DNA of 64,000 nucleotides from an uncultured Flavobacteriales bacterium (GTDB taxonomy: Bacteria > Bacteroidota > Bacteroidia > Flavobacteriales_E > Vicingaceae): NCBI GenBank assembly GCA_913056345.1, contig CAJXMH010000013.1:1-64000 (forward strand), given 5' to 3'. Shown here piece by piece: positions 38,832 to 50,456 of the stretch; position 1 is the stretch's first letter; every line of letters starts with the position of its first letter. Below the pieces are notes generated by a model. That model saw only the letters and a program-made list of their open reading frames with translations. It made no database searches and was not told the DNA's origin. A program made the translations under genes and the position numbers.

Positions 38832-38865
38832 TTGCTCATTTAGAACTCAAAAAGAAATACTTTTG
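38832..38865 (+). promoter_or_regulatory. Promoter of the amine-metabolism cluster
   Basis: TTG (38832-38834) and TACTTTTG (38858-38865) are 23 bp apart and match the Bacteroidota consensus. Transcription would start near 38872, leaving about 50 nt before the ATG at 38921. No comparable signal was found in the short gaps inside the cluster, which supports one long transcript. Confidence 0.65.
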
Positions 38866-38920: not shown

Positions 38921-40231
38921 ATGAGTGATACAGCAAAGAGCGAAGATCTTCTAAGAAGAAGAAAAGAAGCAGTAGCAAATGGGGTAGGAGTATTTAATAC
39001 AGCTACCGCAATTTCAGCCAATAATGCCACCATAATAGATACCAATGGGAATGAGTTGATCGATTTTGCAGGAGGTATTGGAGTGGCGAATGCAGGTCAT
39101 TGTCCGGAACCGGTAATTGAGGCCATAATTGAGCAAGTAAAAAAATACATCCACGTTAGTTTTAATGTGGTTACTTATGAACCTTATGTTGCCCTATGTG
39201 AAAAATTGAATGCGCTTTTTCCACATGGTGAAAAGACGAAAACTATGTTGGTGAGCACCGGTGCTGAAGCGGTAGAAAACGCCATTAAAATTGCCAAGCA
39301 GGCTACCGGTAGAAATGCGGTATTGTGCTATTCAGGAGCTTTTCATGGTAGAACTTTAATGGCCATGACCTTAACCTCAAGAACCTCTTATTCTATTGGT
39401 TGTGGACCTTTTGCGCCGGAGGTTTACCGCATTGATTATCCTAATTTTTACAAGAAAGGAATCGGTTTAACAGAAGCTGAATTTGTTGAACAAGAGCTTC
39501 ATCGCTTGCGTAAGTTTTTCAAGACTAATGTGAGGGCGGAAGACCTAGCAGCAATTATTATTGAATTGGTGCAAGGAGAAGGTGGCTTTCATGTCGCTCC
39601 TAAAGGCTATGTGGAAGGCTTGCGAGAAATATGCGATGAATACGGAATCTGCTTGATCTTTGATGAGGTGCAAACCGGCTTTGGTCGAACTGCTGCTTGG
39701 GGTGCTATGGATCATTTCGGGGTAACTCCTGATCTGTCTACCTGGGCCAAAAGCATGGGTTCAGGTTTACCCATTGGTTGTGTAATTGGTAAAGCAGATG
39801 TTGTAGATTCAGCCAAGCCGAGTACCATTGGAGGGACTTACATTGGTAATCCTGTTGCTTGCGCCGCTTCTTTGGCTACCATTAAGTATATGGAAGATAT
39901 TGATCTGAATGCCAAAGCGAAAAGAGTAGGAGAAATTACCATGCAACGTTTCCAAGCTATGAAAGATCAGTTTTCATGCATTGGTGATGTGCGAGGCTTA
40001 GGTGCCATGAACGCTATGGAGTTTGTAATTGACCAGAATCCTGCTAAACCAGACGCAGACTTATGCCATAAGTTGATCAAAGCTTGTGCGAAGCGCGATT
40101 TAATTGTAATTTCTGCAGGTGTACACAAAAATGTATTGCGCATCTTATCACCCTTAACTATTGAAGAAAACCTTTTAAACAAAGGGTTGGATATTATAGA
40201 GGAAGAGCTTTCTAAATTGACAGAAGATTAA
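38921..40231 (+). CDS. Class III aminotransferase, GABA-aminotransferase-like
   Basis: 436 residues of PLP fold type I. TGAEAVENAIKIAK binds the cofactor phosphate, FHGRT and FDEVQTGFGRT lie around the pyridine ring, and Lys277 (TWAKSMGSGLP) forms the Schiff base; TIGGTYIGNPVA follows. The sequence is closest to 4-aminobutyrate/5-aminovalerate/diamine aminotransferases, which move an omega-amino group to 2-oxoglutarate and leave a semialdehyde. The aldehyde dehydrogenase at the end of the cluster would be its natural partner, and the decarboxylase a source of amine substrate. First gene of the cluster, 34 bp before the nitrilase gene. Confidence 0.93.
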   Translation: MSDTAKSEDLLRRRKEAVANGVGVFNTATAISANNATIIDTNGNELIDFAGGIGVANAGHCPEPVIEAIIEQVKKYIHVSFNVVTYEPYVALCEKLNALFPHGEKTKTMLVSTGAEAVENAIKIAKQATGRNAVLCYSGAFHGRTLMAMTLTSRTSYSIGCGPFAPEVYRIDYPNFYKKGIGLTEAEFVEQELHRLRKFFKTNVRAEDLAAIIIELVQGEGGFHVAPKGYVEGLREICDEYGICLIFDEVQTGFGRTAAWGAMDHFGVTPDLSTWAKSMGSGLPIGCVIGKADVVDSAKPSTIGGTYIGNPVACAASLATIKYMEDIDLNAKAKRVGEITMQRFQAMKDQFSCIGDVRGLGAMNAMEFVIDQNPAKPDADLCHKLIKACAKRDLIVISAGVHKNVLRILSPLTIEENLLNKGLDIIEEELSKLTED

Positions 40232-40265
40232 TCAAAGATTTTTTACTTAAACGAATTATTAATTA

Positions 40266-41180
40266 ATGAAGCCATTTTCCATCGGAGGCATCCAAATGCA
40301 TGTATCAGCAGCTCATTCCAATATAGAGCTAATGAAACACAAAATAGAAGTAATGTGCTCGGTTTACCCTTGGGTACAAATGATCATGTTGTCTGAATTA
40401 TGCGCTCATGGTCCCTTAACGCATCATGCGCAAGAATTTCCAAATGAAGACGAAAAAGTTTTTCAAGAACTAGCCAAGAAGCATAAAATTTGGCTTATTC
40501 CAGGTAGTATGTTTCGAAAAGAAGGAGCACACATTTACAATACTGCTTCAGTTATTAATCCTGAGGGAGAAATCGTAGGCCGTTACGATAAGATGTTTCC
40601 ATTTTACCCTTATGAGGTCGGCGTTACAGGAGGTGACCAATTTTTATTATTTGATGTACCCGATGTTGGTCGTTTTGGACTCTCCATTTGCTATGATGCA
40701 TGGTTTCCTGAGACATCAAGAACCTTGGCGGTGCAGGGAGCAGAAGTAATTTTACACCCAACCTTAACCGGAACCATTGATCGTGACATTGAACTGTCGC
40801 TCATGCAGGCCACTGCAGCAACCAACCAATGTTATGTTTTTGATATCAATGGTTTGGGAGATGGCGGAACTGGAAGGTCTATCGTCTGCGGCCCGGATGG
40901 TAGAGTGCTTTATCAAGCCAGTACAGGCCCTGAGCTAATTCCTATAGAAATTGATTTGGAACGTGTAAAGCGTAGCAGAGAGGAAGGTTTACTTCGCTTA
41001 GGACAACCCCTTAAAAGCTTTCGAGACAGAAGAGTTCATTTCGATATTTACCAACAAAAAGAGAGTCCTTATTTAAATAGTTTAGGAACACTAACCAAAC
41101 CGAGTAGATTGAAGGAAATTGAGCAAGCTATGGGAGGCTCGATCAGCGATCCTTCTTCAAATAGCTCTAGTGATAAATAA
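40266..41180 (+). CDS. Nitrilase-superfamily carbon-nitrogen hydrolase
   Basis: 304 residues with the full Glu-Lys-Cys triad: Glu44 (LSELCAHG), Lys109 (GRYDKMFPFYP) and Cys142 (LSICYDAWFPE). Members hydrolyse amides, N-carbamoyl compounds or omega-amides in the cytoplasm. The motif around Cys and the position next to an aminotransferase and amino-acid decarboxylase would fit a carbamoylputrescine-amidase-like, omega-amidase-like or gamma-glutamyl-amide-like function; the sequence alone does not decide. The C-terminus has a Ser-rich tail of about 15 residues (SDPSSNSSSDK) without obvious role. In tandem with the aminotransferase and 42 bp before the VOC gene. Confidence 0.92.
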   Translation: MKPFSIGGIQMHVSAAHSNIELMKHKIEVMCSVYPWVQMIMLSELCAHGPLTHHAQEFPNEDEKVFQELAKKHKIWLIPGSMFRKEGAHIYNTASVINPEGEIVGRYDKMFPFYPYEVGVTGGDQFLLFDVPDVGRFGLSICYDAWFPETSRTLAVQGAEVILHPTLTGTIDRDIELSLMQATAATNQCYVFDINGLGDGGTGRSIVCGPDGRVLYQASTGPELIPIEIDLERVKRSREEGLLRLGQPLKSFRDRRVHFDIYQQKESPYLNSLGTLTKPSRLKEIEQAMGGSISDPSSNSSSDK

Positions 41181-41222
41181 ACAAACTAATTTTTTGTATT
41201 TTAACCAATCTTATCTACTATC

Positions 41223-41627
41223 ATGAAATCACCCTCAAAGAGGCCCGCCGATATAGCGAATTACAAAAACTTTGTTAGCTGGTTTGAAATACCGGCGATT
41301 AATTTTGAACGTGCGGTTGAATTTTACGAGAACATTTATGGTATTCAGTTAGAAAGGCATCAAGGAAAGGATTTTAAAATGGCCTATTTTCCAGCCGAAG
41401 GAGGAATAGGAGGAGCCATAATATGCGGGGAAGGATCAGTGCCTTCTGATACTGGTTCTTTACTTTATTTAAATGGCGGAGATGATCTCCAATTGATATT
41501 AGACCGCATACCTGAGGCAGGTGGTAGGATTTTACTAGAAAAACAAACGATAAGTGCAGAGGCAGGTTGCTTTGCCCTTTTTATTGATAGCGAAGGCAAC
41601 AAAATGGCGCTGCACTCAAAAGCGTAA
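41223..41627 (+). CDS. VOC-family (glyoxalase/bleomycin-resistance fold) protein
   Basis: 134 residues made of two beta-alpha-beta-beta-beta modules: SWFEIPAINFERAVEFYENI at about 19-38 and GGRILLEKQTI..AGCFALFIDSEGNKMALHS at the end. The first module ends in IYGIQLE and a Met-rich KMAYFP strand. VOC proteins bind metal and act as dioxygenases, lyases or binding proteins; single-copy members of this length are often of unknown function. The metal ligands usually found at the start (His) and end (Glu) of strands are not clearly conserved, so it may be non-catalytic. The stop is one base before the ATG of the decarboxylase gene, so translation is likely coupled. Confidence 0.9.
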   Translation: MKSPSKRPADIANYKNFVSWFEIPAINFERAVEFYENIYGIQLERHQGKDFKMAYFPAEGGIGGAIICGEGSVPSDTGSLLYLNGGDDLQLILDRIPEAGGRILLEKQTISAEAGCFALFIDSEGNKMALHSKA

Positions 41628-41628
41628 C

Positions 41629-44403
41629 ATGGCATCAACAAAAAAGAAAAATAAGTTTAAGGCTACAAATTATTTTAATATCGCTCAATTTAGAAGTGAT
41701 ACATGGAATAATTTAAAGTTGGCCGCTAATCAGTTTGTGCAAACCAATTATCAGAAAATTGACTCTAATGAATTTTCTGATCGTATCGGGGAATCTTTCA
41801 AGACCCTCAAACTGATTGAACGCTATTTTGCCTATCCTGGAACTAACTTCGTAGAGCACTTGGAAAGCATGTATTCAAAAGGTGAATACAGCGCATTTAC
41901 CCACGCTATTTCTGATGTTGTTCGTTCTCTTGTAAGTCAATCTTACCGATCGAACCGTTCAGCCACTGAAACGGAAGAAAAGCGGAAAAAAATTCTAAAA
42001 GAAGACCAAGCATCGGCTCCACGTAAACAGAATTATTTTGAAGTAGTTTTTGTAGATGACTTTAAGGTCAATGACAAGCCCAAACTGCAAGAACGCTTTA
42101 GCGAATTAAAAAGCAAGAAAGACCAATTTACTTATGATGTAATATTGCTCGATAATGCTAAAGATGCTTTAATTGCTCTGCTTTTTAATCCCAATATTCA
42201 AGCATGTGTCATTCGCTCCGGCATAAAGCTCAAGAGTAATGAAGACCTTGAAGTGATCAAGCCTTTTATCAGTAGTCTAGAAAGTATTGATATTACCTCT
42301 GAAGGGAAATTAGACCTCGGGGATAGTTTAGCCAAGCATTTAAAGCAAATGCGACCTGAAATAGATACTTACTACATTGCAGATATGGCTGTTTCTCAAT
42401 TGGGAGACCAAATGCTTGATGGCTTTCGCAGAGTATTCTACCGAACTGAAGACCTACAAGAGATTCATTTAAGTCTTATTCAAGGGGTAAAAGAACGCTA
42501 TGAAACCCCTTTCTTTTCGGCTTTAATGGACTACAGCCGCAAACCGACGGGCGTGTTTCATGCTATGCCAATATCACGGGGAAATTCTATTTTTCGCTCC
42601 CAATGGCTGCAGGATTTTGGCGAATTCTATGGTCGCAATATTTTCTTGGCAGAAACTTCTGCTACCACAGGTGGCCTGGACTCATTGCTGCAACCTGTAG
42701 GGCCCTTAAAGAAGGCTCAAGAAATGGCTGCGAGAGCGTATAGTTCAAAGAAAACTTACTTTGTAACTAATGGGACATCAACAGCTAATAAAATAGTACT
42801 TCAAGCTTTAGTTAAGCCTGATGATTTGGTTTTGATCGACCGTGATTGCCATAAGTCTCACCATTATGGCTTGGTATTAAGTGGAGCTTTACCAGTTTAC
42901 TTGGACTCTTATCCTGTAGAGGAATATTCTATGTATGGAGCAGTTCCTTTAGCTGAAATAAAGAAAAAGCTTCTCGACTTAAAAGAAGCAGGTCGTTTAG
43001 AGCATGTCAAAATGCTACTGCTTACTAATTGTACTTTCGACGGTATTGTGTACAATGTAGAAAGGGTAATGGAAGAAGTGTTGGCCATCAAGCCAGATAT
43101 GGTCTTCTTATGGGATGAGGCTTGGTTTGCTTTTGCCGGTTTTACACCTATTTACAAGCAGCGTACCGCAATGAGAGCGGCACGTAAACTGCAAAAGAAA
43201 TTCCAATCCAAGGCCTACAGAAAGGCTTTCGAAGCCAATCAGAAAGCCGAGCAGCCTCTATTGATGGTTGATCCTGAAGAAGTTCAAATTCGAGTTTACT
43301 CAACCCAATCGACTCACAAAACGCTCTCTTCATTGCGGCAGGGTTCAATGATTCACATATTCGATGAGGTATTTAGAAGGAAAACCGAGGATTCTTTTCA
43401 TGAAGCCTATAAAACCCATACTTCTACATCACCTAACTACCAAATTTTAGCTTCGCTAGATGCAGGTAGGAGGCAAGTAGAATTTGAAGGCTATGAAATG
43501 GTTGAAAAGGCTGTAGAAATGGCAATGGTTTTGCGTTCTAAAATTATGACTCATCCGCAACTAAAAAAGTATTTTGATGTACTTACGGTACGCAATTTTA
43601 TTCCAAAGGAGTTTCGTAAGTCGGGAATTTCTGAATATAACCACCCCGAAAATGGATGGGTACGTATGGAAGAAGCCTGGGCGAGTGATGAATTCGTTTT
43701 GGATCCAACTAAAATCAACCTTTTTATTGGTCGGACAGGTGTAGACGGAGATACTTTTAAGAACCAATATCTGATGGATCAGTTTGGGATTCAGATTAAT
43801 AAGACTTCTCGAAATACTGTGCTGTTCATGACCAATATTGGTACTACTCGGTCTTCAGTGGCTTATCTGATCTCAGTTCTTTTGAAAATTGCCGATCAAT
43901 TGGATCAGCAAAGAGAGGCAATGAGCCAAACCCAATTGAAGAATGTAGAAAAGAACATTAATTCGCTTACAACGCAAACACCCCCTTTACCTGACTTTAG
44001 CCATTTTCATTCCTCATTTCAAGCGGTACCCGGTGTTCCTGGAGGGAATATTCGAGAAGCGTATTTTTTATCTTACGATGAAACGAAAACAGAGTACATT
44101 GGAAGAACAGCTTGTCGAAGAGCTATGCGAAGCGGTCGGGAGATCGTTAGTGCCTCCTTCGTAATTCCCTATCCACCTGGTTTTCCTATTCTAGTGCCCG
44201 GGCAAGTGTTAAGTGAAGAGATCCTAGACTTTTTCATAAAGCTTGATGTGAAGGAAATACACGGTTATCGAGATGAACTAGGAATTAGGGTTTTTACAGA
44301 AGCTGCCTTAAATAGGAAGCAAACCGCTACGGCCATGATGCACACTAAAATAAAAGATGGGATTCCCATTGGACAGAAGAACGGAAATACTAATACGAAA
44401 TAA
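41629..44403 (+). CDS. PLP-dependent Orn/Lys/Arg-type decarboxylase, 924 residues
   Basis: The start is the ATG one base after the VOC stop; a longer frame (41554) runs through the VOC gene and is rejected. A long N-terminal region (about 1-300) includes a receiver-like wing segment (YFEVVFVDD..., YDVILLDNAKDALIALL). The catalytic fold-type-I part follows, with FLAETSATTGGLDSLLQPVGP, YFVTNGTSTANK, the conserved LIDRDCHKSHHYGL and Lys564 in QSTHKTLSS, the SxHK motif of this family. Known relatives make cadaverine, putrescine or agmatine. At 924 residues it is longer than E. coli relatives (about 710-755). The substrate is not readable. Adjacent enzymes suggest the amine is both conjugated (ATP-grasp) and catabolised (aminotransferase, aldehyde dehydrogenase). 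Confidence 0.92.
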   Translation: MASTKKKNKFKATNYFNIAQFRSDTWNNLKLAANQFVQTNYQKIDSNEFSDRIGESFKTLKLIERYFAYPGTNFVEHLESMYSKGEYSAFTHAISDVVRSLVSQSYRSNRSATETEEKRKKILKEDQASAPRKQNYFEVVFVDDFKVNDKPKLQERFSELKSKKDQFTYDVILLDNAKDALIALLFNPNIQACVIRSGIKLKSNEDLEVIKPFISSLESIDITSEGKLDLGDSLAKHLKQMRPEIDTYYIADMAVSQLGDQMLDGFRRVFYRTEDLQEIHLSLIQGVKERYETPFFSALMDYSRKPTGVFHAMPISRGNSIFRSQWLQDFGEFYGRNIFLAETSATTGGLDSLLQPVGPLKKAQEMAARAYSSKKTYFVTNGTSTANKIVLQALVKPDDLVLIDRDCHKSHHYGLVLSGALPVYLDSYPVEEYSMYGAVPLAEIKKKLLDLKEAGRLEHVKMLLLTNCTFDGIVYNVERVMEEVLAIKPDMVFLWDEAWFAFAGFTPIYKQRTAMRAARKLQKKFQSKAYRKAFEANQKAEQPLLMVDPEEVQIRVYSTQSTHKTLSSLRQGSMIHIFDEVFRRKTEDSFHEAYKTHTSTSPNYQILASLDAGRRQVEFEGYEMVEKAVEMAMVLRSKIMTHPQLKKYFDVLTVRNFIPKEFRKSGISEYNHPENGWVRMEEAWASDEFVLDPTKINLFIGRTGVDGDTFKNQYLMDQFGIQINKTSRNTVLFMTNIGTTRSSVAYLISVLLKIADQLDQQREAMSQTQLKNVEKNINSLTTQTPPLPDFSHFHSSFQAVPGVPGGNIREAYFLSYDETKTEYIGRTACRRAMRSGREIVSASFVIPYPPGFPILVPGQVLSEEILDFFIKLDVKEIHGYRDELGIRVFTEAALNRKQTATAMMHTKIKDGIPIGQKNGNTNTK

Positions 44404-44413
44404 ACCTATTACC

Positions 44414-45904
44414 ATGCCCAAAAGCAAGAAGACAAAAGCCAAGAATAAGGAGAAAGTTTTAAGAGGAATACCTGAGATTAGGCGGTTCTTTTACCGGAAT
44501 GAAAAACCCATTTACTTCATCTCAGCTACAAACTTTAATTTGCTTGGAGCTGATGAATGGGTTAGAAAGTTTCGTTTTATCTGTTACATTGAATGCTTCG
44601 ACGGATTGCATCCAAATGTGTTTTCTCCGCAAGAGGAGCTGCCCCATGAAGAGTTTGAAAGTATTGAAGATATCAACAACTATTTGCTTGAGCATAAAGA
44701 GGTTGTTGAATACATTAAAAAGCGAGGAAAAGGCGGTAAAGCGCTGTTTTTGATGTTTGACGAACGGACGGAGGAGTTAGCCAAAAAGCACAAACTCGAA
44801 GTTTGTTTTCCGCCTGCCAAAATGCGGGACTTCATGGATAATAAGGTGAACACTAACCGCATTGCTGAGAAAGCAGGTGTTCCATGCGTGCCTTACATTC
44901 TCGATAAGATCAATAGCTATGAAGATCTAAGAGAAAAATCTAAGCATCTTGGCAAACATTTAGTGATTCAATTACCATTTGGCGATAGTGGTCATACTAC
45001 CTTTTTCATTTCTGATGAGAAATCTTGGAAGAAGCATGAGAAAGAAATTGTTGGAGAGGATGAAGTAAAGGTGATGAAGCGCATCAATTGTCGGGGGGCA
45101 GCTCAAGAGGCCTGTGTGACCAGACACGGAACGATTGTAGCTCCCCTAATGACAGAACTAGTTGGTTTTAAAGAGCTAACTCCCTATAAAGGTGGATGGT
45201 GCGGTAATGAGATCTATGCAGATGCATTTACCCCTAGACTTCGTCAAAAGGCAAGAAAATACACCAGACTTTTCGGCGATCAGCTGAGAGAAGAGGGTTA
45301 CAAAGGGTATTTTGAATTGGATTATTTGATCGATCAAGACACCAATGAGATCTATTTGGGTGAATTGAATCCGCGCATCACTGGTGCTAGCTCCATTACC
45401 AACCATGCCGTGTTTGCTTTGGCTGATATGCCATTGTTTATGTTTCACTTATTAGAGTGGATGGATCAGCCATACAAGATCAGTGTAAATGCCATAAACG
45501 CAAGATGGGCAAGAAAAGAAAACATTGACGATTGGTGTCAATTGGTAATTAAGTACACCAAAGATGATGTGCTTAAAGTCACAAACGCGCCCAAATCAGG
45601 GATTTGGAGATTAGATAAAAAAGGAAAGATCCACTATGATCGCATGGATACGCACCGAAGAGCAATTGATAATGATGATGAGGCTTTCTTCTTACGCATT
45701 ACCAGGGTGGGAGACTATGTTTACGAAGGGGCCGATATTGGAATCTTAGTACTTCGTGGCAGGTTGATGACAGATAAATTTCAGTTAAAAGAACGGGCAA
45801 AAGTATGGATCAAGGCCTTGAAGGATCAGTACATAGGAGAGCCACCTAGCAATGAGACTTTAGCACAAAAAGAAGCAGAGATTGGTGGCTTTAAAATGAT
45901 GTAA
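44414..45904 (+). CDS. ATP-grasp ligase, biotin-carboxylase-like fold
   Basis: 496 residues from MPKSKKTKAK. The frame's earlier ATG (44357) lies inside the decarboxylase gene and is rejected. The lysine-rich start is followed by a Rossmann-like N-domain and an ATP-grasp core with LVIQLPFGDSGHTTFF (ATP-binding loop, about residue 190), GYFELDYLIDQ and YLGELNPRITG (metal-binding Glu and Asn, about 300-320). It lacks the carboxylase-specific and carrier features of biotin carboxylase, so an amide- or peptide-bond ligase using a carboxylate, ATP and an amine is more likely. The cluster context (amine-producing decarboxylase upstream, C45 acyltransferase two bases downstream) suggests the ligand is an amine conjugated to an amino acid or other acid. 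The specificity is unknown. Confidence 0.88.
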   Translation: MPKSKKTKAKNKEKVLRGIPEIRRFFYRNEKPIYFISATNFNLLGADEWVRKFRFICYIECFDGLHPNVFSPQEELPHEEFESIEDINNYLLEHKEVVEYIKKRGKGGKALFLMFDERTEELAKKHKLEVCFPPAKMRDFMDNKVNTNRIAEKAGVPCVPYILDKINSYEDLREKSKHLGKHLVIQLPFGDSGHTTFFISDEKSWKKHEKEIVGEDEVKVMKRINCRGAAQEACVTRHGTIVAPLMTELVGFKELTPYKGGWCGNEIYADAFTPRLRQKARKYTRLFGDQLREEGYKGYFELDYLIDQDTNEIYLGELNPRITGASSITNHAVFALADMPLFMFHLLEWMDQPYKISVNAINARWARKENIDDWCQLVIKYTKDDVLKVTNAPKSGIWRLDKKGKIHYDRMDTHRRAIDNDDEAFFLRITRVGDYVYEGADIGILVLRGRLMTDKFQLKERAKVWIKALKDQYIGEPPSNETLAQKEAEIGGFKMM

Positions 45905-45906
45905 GC

Positions 45907-46911
45907 ATGTTAATTTCTTTGAAGTGTGTGGAGATAGATGAGGCAGGAGAGCAATGGAAAAAACGCTTCGACAAATCATGGCCTTATTATAAAAAGTGGT
46001 ATCTGTCAGAGGGTTATACCGCTAGGCCAGGTTATCTGAGTTGCTTGGAAGCGCTAGAAGAGCACATGCCTGAACTTCTGCCTACCTACGAAAGATTGTG
46101 CGAGTTAGCAGGAGGAGGGGATATTGCATCTCGTTACTTGAGCCAATTTAACCCACCGCTTTTTATGAGTGGTTGCACCCAAGTTGCTTGGAATCGTGAA
46201 CCTTACAGTTTGATTAGAAATTACGACTACAACCCCAAGTGGTTTGAAGGTAATTTTTTCAAGACCAATTGGCTAAAGCCCGTGATTGGGATGTCAGATT
46301 GTAACTGGGGACTGTTAGATGGCATGAATGCTGATGGCTTAGCTATATCCTTGACCTTTGGAGGAAGAAAAGTCTCGGGTGAAGGTTTTGGTATCCCTTT
46401 AGTGATGCGCTATGTATTAGAGACTTGTAAAGATGTTCCCGAAGCTGTTTCTACCTTGCTTCGACTACCTGTGCACATGAGTTACAATGTGACTATTTTA
46501 GACAAGACCGGAAAATACAAAACTGTTTACCTCACTCCGGATAAAGGCCCACATGTAGACATTGAAAAAGTTGCTACCAATCATCAGCAAGATGTGGAAT
46601 GGTTTGAATATGCTGAAATGACCGCTACCAAAGAACGAAAAGCTTTTTTGGATCACTTGGTTGATCAAGAAGCTCAAGATAGAGACGACCTAAGGCAGCG
46701 CTTTTTAGCTGCTCCCTTGTACAACGAAGACCTCAAACGATCATTTGTAACGCTCTACAGCATGCAGTATGATCTAGAAGAATTAAGTGCTACCGTATTT
46801 TGGCCCAATAAAGAAATCAAGCAAACGTTTGATAAGTTTTCAGAATGCAGAGAAATGGTGAAAATGCAGAAGCCGGGAAAAGGGGAACTGACTCAGTATA
46901 AATTGCATTAA
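45907..46911 (+). CDS. C45-type (AAT-like) autoproteolytic acyltransferase/hydrolase
   Basis: 334 residues of the Ntn-hydrolase family related to acyl-CoA:6-aminopenicillanate acyltransferase (peptidase C45). The probable processing site is Gly89-Cys90 in MSGCTQVAWNREP, with RNYDYNP shortly after, as in family members where self-cleavage exposes Cys as nucleophile. This would give chains of 89 and 245 residues. GMSDCNWGLLDGMNADGLAISLTFGG matches the family's conserved stretch after the nucleophile. Known members transfer or remove acyl groups from amine-containing substrates or hydrolyse amide bonds. No signal peptide, so cytoplasmic. Its stop-start gap to the ATP-grasp gene is two bases, so the two are likely to act on the same conjugate, one making and one breaking or exchanging an amide bond. 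Confidence 0.88.
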   Translation: MLISLKCVEIDEAGEQWKKRFDKSWPYYKKWYLSEGYTARPGYLSCLEALEEHMPELLPTYERLCELAGGGDIASRYLSQFNPPLFMSGCTQVAWNREPYSLIRNYDYNPKWFEGNFFKTNWLKPVIGMSDCNWGLLDGMNADGLAISLTFGGRKVSGEGFGIPLVMRYVLETCKDVPEAVSTLLRLPVHMSYNVTILDKTGKYKTVYLTPDKGPHVDIEKVATNHQQDVEWFEYAEMTATKERKAFLDHLVDQEAQDRDDLRQRFLAAPLYNEDLKRSFVTLYSMQYDLEELSATVFWPNKEIKQTFDKFSECREMVKMQKPGKGELTQYKLH

Positions 46912-46966
46912 TTCAATATTAAGATTTACCTAAAGATTAGATTTATCCATAAAATAAAAAACAAAG

Positions 46967-48397
46967 ATGAGTAAGTATACTTCTCACAATTTCGTGAATA
47001 ATCAATGGTTAGGCGATGGTGATGGCAACCATTTATCGATATTACAAAAGTATAGCGGTAAAGAAATAGGGAAAATACCGCAAGCATCTGAAGCGCAAAT
47101 GGAAACTGCCATAGTTTCTGCTTTAGAGGCCTTTGAAACTACTAAGAAATGGTCCGCAGGAAAGCGCGCAGAGATGATGCAGAAGCTACACGACCGCTTG
47201 GCTTCAGAGAAGGAACGATTTATTCAATTGATCATTGATGAAGGAGGAAAACCACGCTCTTATGCCACTACTGAGATCGATCGTTGTCTTTCAACTTTGA
47301 GTATTGCAATTGAAGAAGCAACCAGATATGGGGGAGAAGTGGTGCCCATGGATTTTGACAACGGTGAAGGGAAAACCGCTTTCACCAAGCGTTATCCTAT
47401 TGGGGTGATCGCTTGCATTACGCCTTTTAACTTTCCTTTAAACTTAGTGATGCACAAAGTGGCTCCTGCCTTAGCAGTTGGCTGCACCGTTGTGATTAAA
47501 CCTGCACCTCAGGCTCCTATGAGTTGTTTGGCTTTTGCTGAACTCATGAAAGAAGTAGGCTATCCCGCAGGAACGATCAACGTGCTTTGTTGCGATATTC
47601 CGGTGGCAGAGAAATTAGTGCGAGATGATCGAGTAGCTAAGCTATCTTTTACTGGAAGTGACAAAGTGGGTTGGTATTTAAAAAGCATTTGCGGTAAGAA
47701 AAGGGTGACCCTTGAACTTGGAGGAAATGCGGCTATTCTCGTCGATGAAGACACAGATGTTGAAGCAAAGGCCAAGTTGATGGCAGTAGGTTCATTTTTA
47801 TACGCCGGACAAATTTGTATTTCTACCCAACGGATTTTTGTACATGAAAAAGTATTTGAGCGATTCAAAAATGCATTTTTAGCCGAAGTAGAGAAGCTTC
47901 CGGTTGGCGATCCCAATCAAGAAGAGACTTTGGTAGGGCCGGTTATAGACGCCGGACACCTAGAGCGTATAGACAATTGGGTAAAAGAAGCTGTGGATGG
48001 AGGTGCTGAAGTTCTCTGTGGTGGAATGGTGAAAAACAAATCGCAAAATCTTTACCTGCCTACTGTGTTGACCAACACTCAGAACAGCATGAAAGTCTGT
48101 GCCGAAGAGGTATTTGGACCAGTAGCTGTGATAGAGCAAGTAAAAGATTTTGAGGCCGGTATTAAAGCTGTCAATGATTCCAAATATGGATTACAAGTGG
48201 GTGTTTTTACGAATTCAATGAGCCATTTTAAAGAAGCCTTTGAAAGGTGTGAAGTAGGAGGGGTAATGATGAACAACATTCCCGGCTTCCGCATTGACCA
48301 CATGCCCTATGGTGGGGTGAAGGACTCCGGATTAGGTCGTGAAGGTTTAACCTACGCCATGGATGAAATGACGGAAGGAAGGTTGATTGTTTTTTAG
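46967..48397 (+). CDS. Aldehyde dehydrogenase, NAD(P)-dependent
   Basis: 476 residues, standard length. The nucleophile is Cys284 (YAGQICISTQ) and the general base Glu250 (VTLELGGNA). The cofactor motif FTGSDKVG is at about 227, and EVFGPVAVI is near the C-terminus. The sequence resembles lactaldehyde/succinic-semialdehyde-type ALDHs. As the last gene of the cluster it would oxidise the semialdehyde produced by the class III aminotransferase, for example aminobutyraldehyde or glutarate/succinate semialdehyde. 55 bp separate it from the C45 gene, the widest gap within the cluster, with no promoter I can support. It converges with the deacylase gene. Confidence 0.94.
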   Translation: MSKYTSHNFVNNQWLGDGDGNHLSILQKYSGKEIGKIPQASEAQMETAIVSALEAFETTKKWSAGKRAEMMQKLHDRLASEKERFIQLIIDEGGKPRSYATTEIDRCLSTLSIAIEEATRYGGEVVPMDFDNGEGKTAFTKRYPIGVIACITPFNFPLNLVMHKVAPALAVGCTVVIKPAPQAPMSCLAFAELMKEVGYPAGTINVLCCDIPVAEKLVRDDRVAKLSFTGSDKVGWYLKSICGKKRVTLELGGNAAILVDEDTDVEAKAKLMAVGSFLYAGQICISTQRIFVHEKVFERFKNAFLAEVEKLPVGDPNQEETLVGPVIDAGHLERIDNWVKEAVDGGAEVLCGGMVKNKSQNLYLPTVLTNTQNSMKVCAEEVFGPVAVIEQVKDFEAGIKAVNDSKYGLQVGVFTNSMSHFKEAFERCEVGGVMMNNIPGFRIDHMPYGGVKDSGLGREGLTYAMDEMTEGRLIVF

Positions 48398-48469: not shown

Positions 48470-49420
48470 TTAATGATTTAAAGTGCCCAAATGAAACAAG
48501 GCATCCCCTTGATTGACCAAAGGGGCATTATTGTGACCGATGATAATTCCAGAATCAGGAGCTTTAATCCTAACAGGTTTGCTGCCAAAAGGATCGGATA
48601 GATAGCCCATCACATCATTTTGATCAACCCATTCTCCACTTTTTAAAGCAGGGTGAAAAAGGCCTGCTCTTCTTGCTCGTACCCATTGACTTTTAGAGCA
48701 GAAAGTATGGTTTTGAACTGGTATTTCCTCTTCGATCATACCAAAGTGAGATAATACTCTCTTCGCACCTCTAATTCCTTCCGTAATGCTCAACTCATCA
48801 AAGCGCATGGATTCTCCTCCTTCATAAACCACAATGGATTTTCCCATTTTGTAGGCTTCTTTTCGCAAAGATTTATCAATCAGATTGGATTCTAAGCTAA
48901 TCGGAGCATTGAAGATAGCGGCGATTTCACGGGCCTTTGAATCATTAGGCGCAAATCGACTTTGTGGATAATTATAACGATTGGCACCTCCGGTGTGGAA
49001 GTCAATCCCAAAATCAATTTCAGCTAATACTTTCTTTGTAAGATTATAAGCTACGCGAGAAGCAAGTGAACCGGTCTTATTTCCCGGGAAATACCGATTA
49101 ACATCTTTTCCGTCAGGGACTTCTCTAGAAAAGTTGAGAAAACCATAGATATTCAGCACAGGTATGGCTATTACAGAGCCCCTTTTTAGGTTTTTAAAAG
49201 TCTTTGCTCTTATCAGTCTACGGATGATTTCGATCCCGTCCACTTCATCGCCATGCAAACCACCGCTTAACAGAATAATTGGGCCAGGCTTTTTACTCCG
49301 ATAAACATAAATAGGTAGATCGATTGCAGTACCTGAAACTAAACGAGCGATGTTTAAGTCAATGACTTTGCTTTCTCCTCGCTTTATGAGCTGGCCATCT
49401 ACACTAAGCTCTCTTTTCAT
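48470..49420 (-). CDS. Succinylglutamate desuccinylase/aspartoacylase-family deacylase
   Basis: 316 residues of the zinc-dependent M14-like AstE/ASPA family, which removes acyl groups from N-acyl amino acids. Metal-site motifs are visible: GGLHGDEVDGIEI (His and Glu ligands, about 57-69), then IDFGIDFHTGG with the second His, and a C-terminal lipoyl-like beta domain (SGIIIGHNNAPLVNQGDALF). The N-terminal segment RGESKVIDLNIARL is typical of marine Bacteroidota and Proteobacteria members often paired with RimK. ATG overlaps the RimK stop by one base (TAATG). The pair may attach and remove amino acids from a substrate, or the deacylase may free an acylated intermediate of the facing cluster; both are inference. 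Confidence 0.9.
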   Translation of the reverse strand: MKRELSVDGQLIKRGESKVIDLNIARLVSGTAIDLPIYVYRSKKPGPIILLSGGLHGDEVDGIEIIRRLIRAKTFKNLKRGSVIAIPVLNIYGFLNFSREVPDGKDVNRYFPGNKTGSLASRVAYNLTKKVLAEIDFGIDFHTGGANRYNYPQSRFAPNDSKAREIAAIFNAPISLESNLIDKSLRKEAYKMGKSIVVYEGGESMRFDELSITEGIRGAKRVLSHFGMIEEEIPVQNHTFCSKSQWVRARRAGLFHPALKSGEWVDQNDVMGYLSDPFGSKPVRIKAPDSGIIIGHNNAPLVNQGDALFHLGTLNH

Positions 49421-50328
49421 TATACGCCTACCTTGTCTTTCAATTTTGCCTTTTTACCTACGCTATTTTCTACGTATTCAATGATCTTGCCAGCAATATC
49501 AACTCCGGTAGAGCGCTCAATGCCGCCTAATCCAGGCGAAGAGTTAACTTCTAAGATTAAAGGTCCACGATCAGATTGGAGCATATCTACTCCTGCAATA
49601 CTTAGGCCCATGGCTTTGGCAGCTTTTACAGCCGCCGCAGTCTCTCTTCTTTTGAGTTTGATCATGCTGCTGCTGCCACCACGGTGTAGGTTACTTCTAA
49701 ATTCACCCTCCTTACCTTGACGTTTCATGGCACCAACAACTTTTCCATCGACCACAAATGCCCGAATATCAGCTCCTCCTGCTTCTTTAATAAACTCCTG
49801 TACCAAAATACTCTTATCCATACCCATAAAGGCTTCAATTACCGATTTGGCCGCCTTTTGTGTTTCGGCCAAGACAACTCCTAAGCCTTGTGTTCCTTCT
49901 AAAACCTTTAAGATTAATGGGGCACCGCCTACAGTTCTGATAAGGTGAGGAATATCTTTAGGACTTCGGGCAAAAGCTGTTTTGGGAATATCCAAATTCT
50001 CTCTCGACATGATCTGTATGCTCCTCAGTTTATCTCTTGAGCGGGTCAAGGCTACGGACTTGACTGTAGAAAATATTTTCTGCATCTCAAACTGACGGAT
50101 TATGGAAGCACCATAAAAAGTTACAGAGGCTCCTATTCGTGGTATTATGGCGTCAATTCCTTTTATTTCTTCCTTACCATAGTAAATGGACGGGTCACGA
50201 CTTTCGTTTACGATATAGCATTTAGCGTGGTCGAGCACTCTCATATTGTGTCCTCTTTCTTCGCCGGCTTGAACTAATCTTGAAGTTGAGTATAGATGTG
50301 GGTTTCTTGAAAGTATGGCAATGTTCAT
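49420..50328 (-). CDS. rimK: RimK-family ATP-grasp ligase
   Basis: 302 residues from [10 protein letters not shown]; an in-frame ATG at 50352 would add eight residues foreign to the family. RimK adds glutamate residues to the C-terminus of ribosomal protein S6 in E. coli, and relatives make peptide bonds on other carboxylates. The ATP-grasp signature is complete: [19 protein letters not shown] (about 148), [20 protein letters not shown], and [16 protein letters not shown] with the Glu and Asn metal ligands. Here it is coupled to an aspartoacylase-like deacylase, a pairing seen in other Bacteroidota, so its target may be a small molecule or a protein other than S6. Confidence 0.92.
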
Positions 50329-50456
50329 GAAATGGTATTTACTATGGTACATTCCAAAACTAATGTTCTTGAAGCAATACTAAAACAGAAGCGGCTAATA
50401 AAATGTCAAAATCAAATCGTTCTGTTTGCTTATTTTCGATTTCTCAAAGTTGTAAG

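What the first reader, a model, noticed from the sequence alone, without database searches (positions are those of the whole stretch)
38921..48397. Seven-gene amine cluster with ligase and C45 acyltransferase: candidate undescribed pathway
Seven genes on one strand with gaps of 1-55 bp combine a class III aminotransferase, a nitrilase-fold hydrolase, a VOC protein, an unusually long Orn/Lys/Arg-type decarboxylase, an ATP-grasp ligase, an autoproteolytic C45 acyltransferase and an aldehyde dehydrogenase. Catalytic residues are present in all the enzymes. One promoter is visible (38832-38865). The set suggests that an amine made by decarboxylation is conjugated by an ATP-dependent amide bond, the conjugate is processed by the Ntn-type enzyme and nitrilase, and the amine end is transaminated and oxidised. 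Parallels exist in gamma-glutamylated putrescine degradation (PuuA-PuuD route), which also makes an amide with ATP, but the PuuA, PuuB and PuuD families are replaced here. I know of no described pathway with this exact combination; novelty is not proven.
Basis: partly seen in the sequence, partly recalled or inferred. Interest (0 to 1): 0.82.

Follow-up and report, generated by a model that had tools for sequence, protein, structure and literature searches.

The report
Conserved arginine-linked amine catabolism gene cluster
A row of seven enzyme genes, whose core is kept together in distantly related bacteria, probably breaks down arginine or a related amino acid by an apparently undescribed route, using an enzyme that databases, probably wrongly, call a biotin carboxylase.

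Summary
Observation confirmed: seven same-strand genes, gaps 1-55 bp, catalytic residues conserved. It is a recurring unit: in 62 of 63 loci with enough flank (mostly Bacteroidota), aminotransferase, nitrilase, decarboxylase and ATP-grasp gene keep order and strand; the last three recur with C45 in 3 of 12 proteobacterial plasmid loci read. VOC, C45 and ALDH are less constant. It is patchy: 6 of 394 other genomes of the phylum.

The conjugation idea is partly supported. The ATP-grasp protein has TGAS where biotin carboxylase has QVEH (80 of 80 loci), favouring a ligase; C45 has the right fold and nucleophile. The aminotransferase keeps GABA-transaminase residues, so it likely acts on the final omega-amino acid. 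New: on Shinella-type plasmids the ATP-grasp, C45 and nitrilase genes lie in an arginine-degradation cluster, and 4 of 8 plasmids with the nitrilase carry the rare 2-ketoarginine decarboxylase. Best reading: an arginine-linked route to GABA and succinate through an ATP-made amide. Substrates are unproven; relatives of the decarboxylase beside aspT antiporters keep an acidic substrate possible. The decarboxylase belongs with Rv2531c, whose activity is unknown. Ten searches of open papers found no description.

The parts
38832..38865 (+). possible promoter (TTG N23 TAnnTTTG), unproven
   Evidence: sequence present; not enriched and not conserved (1 of 61)
38921..40231 (+). AT3: class III aminotransferase, GABA-transaminase type
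   Evidence: PF00202 367.7 bits; TIGR00700 469.8 bits, below cut-off 506.65; R144, E220, K277, R407 kept in 63/63, 64/64, 65/65, 65/65 matches in the 80 loci; of two plasmid matches one keeps all four and one only K277
40266..41180 (+). NIT: nitrilase-superfamily C-N hydrolase
   Evidence: PF00795 109.9 bits; E44, K109, C142 kept in 66/66, 67/67, 68/68 matches and in 7/7 plasmid copies
41223..41627 (+). VOC-family protein, accessory
   Evidence: PF00903 20.8 bits, just over cut-off; present in 49 of 69 loci
41629..44403 (+). DC: 924-aa fold-type I Orn/Lys/Arg-type decarboxylase of the Rv2531c group
   Evidence: PF01276 270.4 bits; 814.8 bits over residues 17-902 to PDB 9n0n; upstream of GRASP in 70 of 70 loci; PLP lysine K564 in 73/73 matches and 8/8 plasmid copies, but H411 in only 4 of 8 plasmid copies
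44417..45904 (+). GRASP: ATP-grasp protein annotated biotin carboxylase (PRK06524), probably a ligase
   Evidence: NF005096 772.1 bits; TGAS 322-325 in place of the biotin-carboxylase QVEH; fold ties BC, PurK, PylC
45907..46911 (+). C45: autoproteolytic Ntn-type acyltransferase/hydrolase
   Evidence: NF040521 150 bits, cut-off 85; AAT fold Z 30.1, rmsd 3.0, 300 aligned; Cys90 in 56/56 matches
46967..48397 (+). ALDH: aldehyde dehydrogenase
   Evidence: PF00171 488.7 bits; 43 of 80 loci have a different ALDH (under 40% identity), 14 of 80 the window's type; the one different ALDH tested (L030) is most like SSADHs

Best explanation
A horizontally spread catabolic operon that takes a basic amino acid, most likely arginine, to GABA and succinate through an amide intermediate made with ATP. 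Proposed steps: (1) DC decarboxylates arginine (or ornithine from arginase) to agmatine/putrescine [inferred]. (2) GRASP, a carboxylate-amine ligase and not a biotin carboxylase, caps this amine or a later intermediate with an acyl group such as glutamate [inferred; loss of the biotin-carboxylase residues is shown]. (3) The free end is oxidised to an acid by a transaminase or oxidase plus ALDH [inferred]. (4) C45 and/or NIT hydrolyse the amide and release an omega-amino acid [inferred; active-site residues shown]. (5) AT3 turns GABA into succinate semialdehyde and ALDH oxidises it to succinate [supported by families and residues, not assayed]. VOC is accessory.
For: Order and strand kept in 62 of 63 loci; distance matrices of AT3, NIT, DC and GRASP correlate 0.79-0.92 over 62 loci, null maximum 0.27 (shared species history contributes). 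NIT, DC, GRASP and C45 recur together on Roseobacter, Pseudorhodobacter and Cupriavidus oxalaticus plasmids, in Roseobacter with a gabT (47% to AT3) 2.6 kb upstream of NIT. In Shinella, Roseateles XES5 and Sinorhizobium RAC02, GRASP-C45 and a nearby NIT lie with 5-guanidino-2-oxopentanoate decarboxylase (737 bits, cut-off 500), an agmatinase-family protein (TIGR01230 212 bits, cut-off 174), ALDH, D-amino acid dehydrogenase, a racemase fused to an arginase-family domain, an APC permease and Lrp (family scores for Shinella). NIT relatives (E <= 1e-50) are in 8 plasmid records; 7 also hold GRASP within about 10 kb, and 4 hold that decarboxylase, found at E <= 1e-100 in 24 of 72,556 records. Lrp or APC permease genes accompany 10 and 9 of the loci. 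AT3 keeps the GABA-transaminase R/E/K/R set (assignment recalled). The common alternative ALDH, tested in one copy, is SSADH-like (538.9 bits to NF006915, cut-off 730).
Against: The Shinella-type cluster looks like a complete arginine-to-GABA route without DC yet keeps GRASP, C45 and NIT, so the ligase may act on 4-guanidinobutyrate or GABA, not on the amine. Three of the four arginine contexts share one architecture, and in the fourth (Ensifer) there is no GRASP and NIT has lost the catalytic lysine. DC relatives without GRASP sit beside aspT antiporters; in Phyllobacterium such a DC with Lrp and aspT lies beside a divergent aminotransferase and succinate-semialdehyde dehydrogenase, as if DC itself fed GABA breakdown. 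C45 is missing from 21 of 76 loci and, by PF03417, from 2 of 29 whole genomes, with only a 556-aa paralogue in a third; C45 relatives also occur without GRASP, e.g. Sulfitobacter. No amine oxidase is in the cluster. The window's genome has no agmatine deiminase hit, lacks the two-part SpeA-like hit seen in the 28 other genomes and, by my reading, has arginase but no clear agmatinase, so removal of the guanidino group is unexplained if DC makes agmatine. Rhizobial DC-GRASP-C45 operons lack AT3 and ALDH.
Confidence: 0.37

Rival explanations
1. DC acts on an acidic amino acid (aspartate or glutamate), giving beta-alanine or GABA directly; GRASP makes and C45 cleaves beta-alanyl or GABA amides, as Ebony and Tan do in insects, and AT3/ALDH degrade the omega-amino acid.
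For: DC relatives on four alphaproteobacterial plasmids stand next to aspT aspartate-alanine antiporters, in two with aspartate 4-decarboxylase, and in Phyllobacterium beside an aminotransferase and an SSADH; Tan is a C45 enzyme (recalled; the listing has a paper on ebony and tan that mentions peptidase C45); AT3 is GABA-type.
Against: DC is an OKR-family protein; GRASP and NIT occur in arginine contexts. The aspT-linked DCs are 42.6-43.3% identical to the window's, against 52-53% for Roseobacter, Pseudorhodobacter and C. oxalaticus, but rhizobial GRASP-linked DCs are also only 42-48%, so this separates little.
Confidence: 0.2
2. The DC-GRASP-C45 core is biosynthetic: it makes an acylated amine product (signal, storage or symbiosis compound), and AT3/ALDH only recycle the omega-amino acid.
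For: R. leguminosarum plasmids keep DC-GRASP-C45 without AT3/ALDH nearby, in two cases beside nifH, with a peptide-type ABC importer and an amidase; S. meliloti SM11 likewise has DC-GRASP-C45, importer and amidase. In fungi a decarboxylase, an ATP-grasp enzyme and an amide synthetase build E-64 from amines (PMC12568646, passages).
Against: AT3 and NIT accompany GRASP in 62 of 63 and 65 of 66 loci, which suits catabolism; the ABC genes annotated nearby include substrate-binding proteins, so importers.
Confidence: 0.2
3. The substrate is lysine: DC makes cadaverine, the amide route gives 5-aminovalerate, and AT3/ALDH work as DavT/DavD to give glutarate.
For: The OKR family includes lysine decarboxylases; GABA transaminases and SSADHs often accept the C5 homologues (recalled).
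Against: The neighbourhoods with assigned pathway genes next to GRASP or NIT point to arginine. Glutarate degradation genes were not looked for.
Confidence: 0.13
4. GRASP is a biotin-independent, bicarbonate-using carboxylase (like PurK) that acts on the guanidino group or urea, with NIT/C45 hydrolysing the product.
For: Foldseek ranks biotin carboxylases first and PurK and biotin carboxylase lead by Z (22.0, 21.9); the top NCBIfam model for NIT is N-carbamoylputrescine amidase (82.9 bits).
Against: QVEH is replaced by TGAS in 80 of 80 matches; PylC, an amide ligase, ties in fold (21.6).
Confidence: 0.1

Closest known systems
Gamma-glutamylated putrescine route (PuuA-PuuB-PuuC-PuuD, then PuuE/GabT and SSADH)
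   Same: Amide made with ATP, aldehyde oxidation, amide hydrolysis, GABA transamination, semialdehyde oxidation would be the same logic (route recalled).
   Different: Ligase is ATP-grasp instead of glutamine-synthetase type, hydrolase is C45/nitrilase instead of class I GATase, no FAD amine oxidase in the cluster, and a dedicated decarboxylase is included; donor unknown.
Arginine transaminase / D-arginine dehydrogenase route (2-ketoarginine decarboxylase AruI, ALDH, guanidinobutyrase)
   Same: GRASP, C45 and NIT are encoded within or beside such clusters on three plasmids.
   Different: AruI and guanidinobutyrase are not in the window cluster; DC is there instead.
Rv2531c-type decarboxylases (M. 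tuberculosis; PDB 9n0n, 9n0o, 9n0p)
   Same: Near full-length match to DC, 814.8 bits.
   Different: Rv2531c has no clarified activity (PMC12910592, passages); PMC4569260 (one passage) says its gene is not crucial for growth on arginine.
E-64 pathway of Aspergillus (PLP decarboxylase, ATP-grasp Cp1B, amide synthetase Cp1D)
   Same: Decarboxylase clustered with an ATP-grasp amide-forming enzyme; amines such as agmatine and putrescine are built in (PMC12568646, passages).
   Different: Biosynthetic, fungal; there the ATP-grasp enzyme makes the pseudodipeptide and a second enzyme, Cp1D, is needed for the product with the amine; sequence relation to GRASP not tested.

Membership tests
Puu (gamma-glutamyl-putrescine) pathway | glutamine-synthetase-type ligase PuuA in the cluster | tested here: not met
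   none of the seven proteins matches it; the ATP-using protein is NF005096
Puu (gamma-glutamyl-putrescine) pathway | class I GATase hydrolase PuuD (PF07722) in the cluster | tested here: not met
   none of the seven proteins matches it
Puu (gamma-glutamyl-putrescine) pathway | PuuD elsewhere in the genome | tested here: inconclusive
   29 of 29 genomes, G000 included, have PF07722 hits over the family cut-off, but the listed hits are partial (profile from 87 on) and at most 47.8 bits; I read them as other GATases
Puu (gamma-glutamyl-putrescine) pathway | GABA transaminase PuuE/GabT | tested here: inconclusive
   AT3's best PDB matches are GabT and PuuE, residues kept, TIGR00700 score below its equivalog cut-off
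Biotin carboxylase | catalytic QVEH after the NPR/NTR motif | tested here: not met
   TGAS in its place; invariant in the 45-sequence alignment A1 and 80 of 80 loci; in 12 plasmid copies the Glu position is Ala in 11 and Cys in 1. Role of QVEH recalled
PRK06524 / NF005096 | NCBIfam curated score | tested here: met
   772.1 bits, cut-off 684
OKR decarboxylase (fold type I) | PF01276 with PLP lysine | tested here: met
   270.4 bits, cut-off 27; K564 in 73 of 73; the C-terminal domain PF03711 is below cut-off (22.5 of 24.2)
OKR decarboxylase (fold type I) | activity on Orn, Lys or Arg | not testable with these tools
   no assay; specificity residues not assigned
C45 / AAT Ntn hydrolase | fold and N-terminal nucleophile Cys | tested here: met
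   NF040521 150 of 85 bits; Z 30.1 to 2x1c, and Cys90 aligned with the first residues of bile salt hydrolases and penicillin V acylase
N-carbamoylputrescine amidase (AguB) | TIGR03381 score | tested here: not met
   82.9 bits, cut-off 410.25, though it is the top-ranked model
2-ketoarginine (AruI) arginine route | AruI and guanidinobutyrase in the cluster | tested here: not met
   absent from the window cluster; present with GRASP/C45/NIT in 3 of 12 plasmid loci read

The most novel reading that the evidence does not exclude
An undescribed arginine-to-GABA route, shared by Bacteroidota and Proteobacteria through gene transfer, in which a misannotated 'biotin carboxylase' is an amide ligase and a C45 or nitrilase enzyme removes the cap; it would also suggest what the orphan Rv2531c-type decarboxylases do.
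Probability: 0.33. Interest if true: 0.75.

Novelty: new variant of a known kind. Interest (0 to 1): 0.56.

Why it matters
If right, it adds a route of arginine or polyamine breakdown to scattered marine and soil bacteria, corrects the annotation of a whole family now named biotin carboxylase, and offers a testable function for a group of decarboxylases whose tuberculosis member has a structure but no known reaction. The same genes beside nif genes on rhizobial plasmids raise a question about amine metabolism in nodules.

Tried and rejected
Rejected: GRASP as an ordinary biotin carboxylase. Promoter claim: not supported by counts. PuuD in place of C45: the 220-235 aa gene between GRASP and ALDH in L061, L102 and L103 has no Pfam match at E <= 1e-5 where tested (L102) and does not look like a GATase by eye. 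A putrescine supply test gave no clear answer: 29 of 29 genomes have some ureohydrolase-family hit; agmatine-deiminase hits at E <= 0.001 are in 11 of 29, covering most of the model in 7 (3 in one piece, 4 in two), and none reaches the cut-off; SpeA reaches its cut-off in 0 of 29. The fold search of GRASP could not separate ligase from carboxylase, since BC, PurK and PylC tie. Ten paper searches found no description of the cluster; the paper on the Rv2531c structure is not held. The neighbour genes c8 (trans-sulfuration-type PLP enzyme, named by eye) and Lrp in ten loci were not followed. A first synteny run used a frame-shifted DC query and was discarded; one search replaced it. Only the best 80 of 165 confirmed GRASP loci and 12 of 32 GRASP-bearing plasmid records were read for the main counts; two more rhizobial GRASP neighbourhoods were seen later. 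The five loci L021-L025 (duplicates or fragments) were left out of the counts.


Full report
What is there. Seven genes on the + strand, 38921-48397, separated by 34, 42, 1, 13, 2 and 55 bp. Pfam and NCBIfam confirm a class III aminotransferase (AT3), a nitrilase-superfamily hydrolase (NIT), a marginal VOC protein, an OKR-type decarboxylase of 924 aa (DC), an ATP-grasp protein (GRASP), a C45 acyltransferase/hydrolase and an aldehyde dehydrogenase. The flanking genes are a pyridine-nucleotide-disulphide oxidoreductase in divergent orientation (lipoamide-dehydrogenase-like by my reading) and, on the other strand downstream, an AstE-family and a RimK-family gene.

Is it a unit? A scan of one genome per species with GRASP confirmed 165 relatives; the best 80 were fetched, GRASP identity 66-89%. 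By record title, 72 of the 80 are Bacteroidota (assignment recalled), 4 Balneolia or Balneolaceae, 1 Calditrichaeota, 1 Planctomycetota and 2 unnamed; many are MAGs, so single odd titles may be misbinned. Where the contig leaves room, DC is upstream of GRASP in 70 of 70 loci, NIT in 65 of 66, AT3 in 62 of 63, VOC in 49 of 69; downstream, C45 is in 55 of 76 and an ALDH of either type in 48 of 67. AT3, NIT, DC, GRASP are in that order and on that strand in 62 of 63; L056 is the exception. Distances between the four core genes correlate 0.79-0.92 over 62 loci, null maximum 0.27, though species history alone gives part of that. The distribution is patchy: besides the window's own genome, 4 of 59 relatives and 6 of 394 genomes drawn from the phylum pass the family cut-off, which fits horizontal transfer.

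Outside Bacteroidota. GRASP is in 32 of 72,556 plasmid records at E <= 1e-5, 23 of them with at least 80% of the query; I read 12 of these neighbourhoods and matched the cluster proteins to them. C45 follows GRASP in 12 of 12 (cut short in L115, in two pieces in L108). DC precedes it in 8 of 12 (in two pieces in L115). NIT is in 7 of 12: Roseobacter, Pseudorhodobacter, two Cupriavidus and the three Shinella-type loci; short stretches similar to NIT (35-38 aa) lie between DC and GRASP in two rhizobial loci (L109, L116). All four together are in 3 of 12 (L106, L107, L113). The converse holds too: NIT relatives (E <= 1e-50) occur in 8 plasmid records and 7 of these are GRASP records. C45 is looser: its relatives (E <= 1e-40) are in 93 records, more than hold GRASP, and the Sulfitobacter copy read has none of the other genes annotated beside it.

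The arginine link. In Shinella zoogloeoides, Roseateles XES5 and Sinorhizobium RAC02, GRASP-C45 stands in a run of genes with an APC permease, an agmatinase-family protein (TIGR01230 212 bits, over its cut-off), 5-guanidino-2-oxopentanoate decarboxylase (737 bits, over its cut-off), ALDH, D-amino acid dehydrogenase, an ornithine-racemase-like domain fused to an arginase-family domain, and RidA; NIT and Lrp are divergent beside them (family scores are for Shinella). The eighth NIT record, Ensifer adhaerens, has no GRASP but also lies beside that decarboxylase and an ALDH, though its NIT has Asn in place of the catalytic Lys. At E <= 1e-100 that decarboxylase is in only 24 of 72,556 records, so 4 of 8 is far above background; three of the four share one architecture, so they are not independent. 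The decarboxylase is also found without these genes (three loci read). On the Roseateles XES5 plasmid an unlinked DC lies some 7 kb from an arginase gene and near LysE/ArgO and ArgP genes.

What speaks for another substrate. DC relatives without GRASP stand beside aspT antiporters in Rhizobium T136 (with aspartate 4-decarboxylase and an HdeA/HdeB gene), Rhodobacter CZR27, Phyllobacterium T1018 and Ensifer canadensis (with aspartate 4-decarboxylase). In Phyllobacterium an Lrp-DC-aspT run faces a divergent SSADH and aminotransferase. This looks like acid resistance or direct feeding of GABA breakdown, and keeps an acidic substrate for DC possible.

What each protein can do. GRASP: the NCBIfam name is 'biotin carboxylase', but in the alignment with pyruvate carboxylase the stretch after NPR is TGAS where the carboxylase has QVEH; it is TGAS in 80 of 80 matches, and in 12 plasmid copies the catalytic Glu position is Ala (11) or Cys (1). 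The role of QVEH in biotin carboxylase is recalled. The model (mean pLDDT 84.5) matches PurK (Z 22.0), biotin carboxylase (21.9) and the amide ligase PylC (21.6), a tie; Foldseek itself ranks biotin carboxylases first. A ligase is the likelier reading. C45: model pLDDT 92.8, best match isopenicillin N acyltransferase, Z 30.1, rmsd 3.0, 300 aligned; Cys90 and residues R104, N105, D107 in 56 of 56. NIT: Glu-Lys-Cys triad kept in every match examined in the 80 loci and in 7 of 7 plasmid copies; its best NCBIfam model is N-carbamoylputrescine amidase, far below cut-off. DC: relative of Rv2531c over 886 residues (814.8 bits); PLP lysine kept throughout, but His411 in only 4 of 8 plasmid copies. Relatives in the Roseobacter cluster (828.4 bits) and in an aspT-linked, GRASP-free locus (759.6 bits) are about as close to Rv2531c, so these scores do not tell which context it shares. 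AT3: residues corresponding to the GABA-transaminase set Arg141, Glu211, Lys268, Arg398 (numbering recalled, matched by spacing) are kept in all matches in the 80 loci; of two plasmid matches one, which I take to be the Roseobacter gabT, keeps them and the other, in Pseudorhodobacter, keeps only the lysine. ALDH: the window's type is in 14 of 80 loci, another ALDH in 43 of 80, none in place (or no room) in 23; the one copy of the other ALDH tested is most like succinate-semialdehyde dehydrogenases.

Reading. The end of the pathway, omega-amino acid to dicarboxylate, is the best-supported part. The start is probably a basic amino acid, arginine by context. The middle, an amide made by GRASP and cleaved by C45 and/or NIT, is inference. 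Two facts limit it. The Shinella-type clusters appear to make GABA from arginine without DC, so GRASP may act after the two routes meet (4-guanidinobutyraldehyde, 4-guanidinobutyrate or GABA). And the window's genome, reported 99.66% complete, shows no agmatine deiminase, only a partial 72.7-bit SpeA hit where the other 28 genomes show a two-part hit (none of the 29 reaches the cut-off), and three ureohydrolase-family hits, the strongest next to what I read as argS and so call arginase; agmatine would have no evident classical fate there. If DC acts on ornithine instead, arginase would supply it.

Literature. Ten searches of the open full-text library found no account of the cluster. PMC12910592 (passages read) lists Rv2531c as a putative amino acid decarboxylase of unclarified activity; PMC4569260 (one passage) reports that its gene is not crucial for growth on arginine; PMC12568646 (passages) gives a fungal precedent for a decarboxylase, an ATP-grasp enzyme and amines in amide synthesis; the passages of PMC9007349 that I saw do not mention this cluster.

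Noticed in passing
L116:7201-12471, L138:1829-7020, L108, L117, L139: R. leguminosarum and R. beringeri plasmids carry DC-GRASP-C45, in L116 and L138 beside nifH, with a peptide-type ABC importer and often an amidase; some copies look split.
   Followed up: partly
L110:15782-17569: A protein annotated alanine racemase is an ornithine-racemase-like domain joined to an arginase-family domain.
   Followed up: partly
L061:11529-12191, L102:11476-12180, L103:2088-2795: A similar-looking 220-235 aa protein stands between GRASP and ALDH where C45 is missing; the L102 copy has no Pfam match.
   Followed up: partly
L119, L121, L134, L135: Relatives of the long decarboxylase sit beside aspT antiporters, in L119 and L135 also with aspartate 4-decarboxylase, in L119 with an HdeA/HdeB gene, in L134 beside an SSADH and an aminotransferase.
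   Followed up: partly
window 48470-50352 (-); L069:15569-17432: A RimK-type ligase and an AstE-type hydrolase form a pair just downstream on the other strand; the same pair lies about 4 kb from the cluster in L069.
   Followed up: no
L108:3142-6969, L117:611-4445: A Nif11-leader peptide with radical SAM RiPP enzymes lies near the rhizobial DC-GRASP genes.
   Followed up: no
L067, L093: Two C45 genes in tandem follow GRASP in Brumimicrobium.
   Followed up: no
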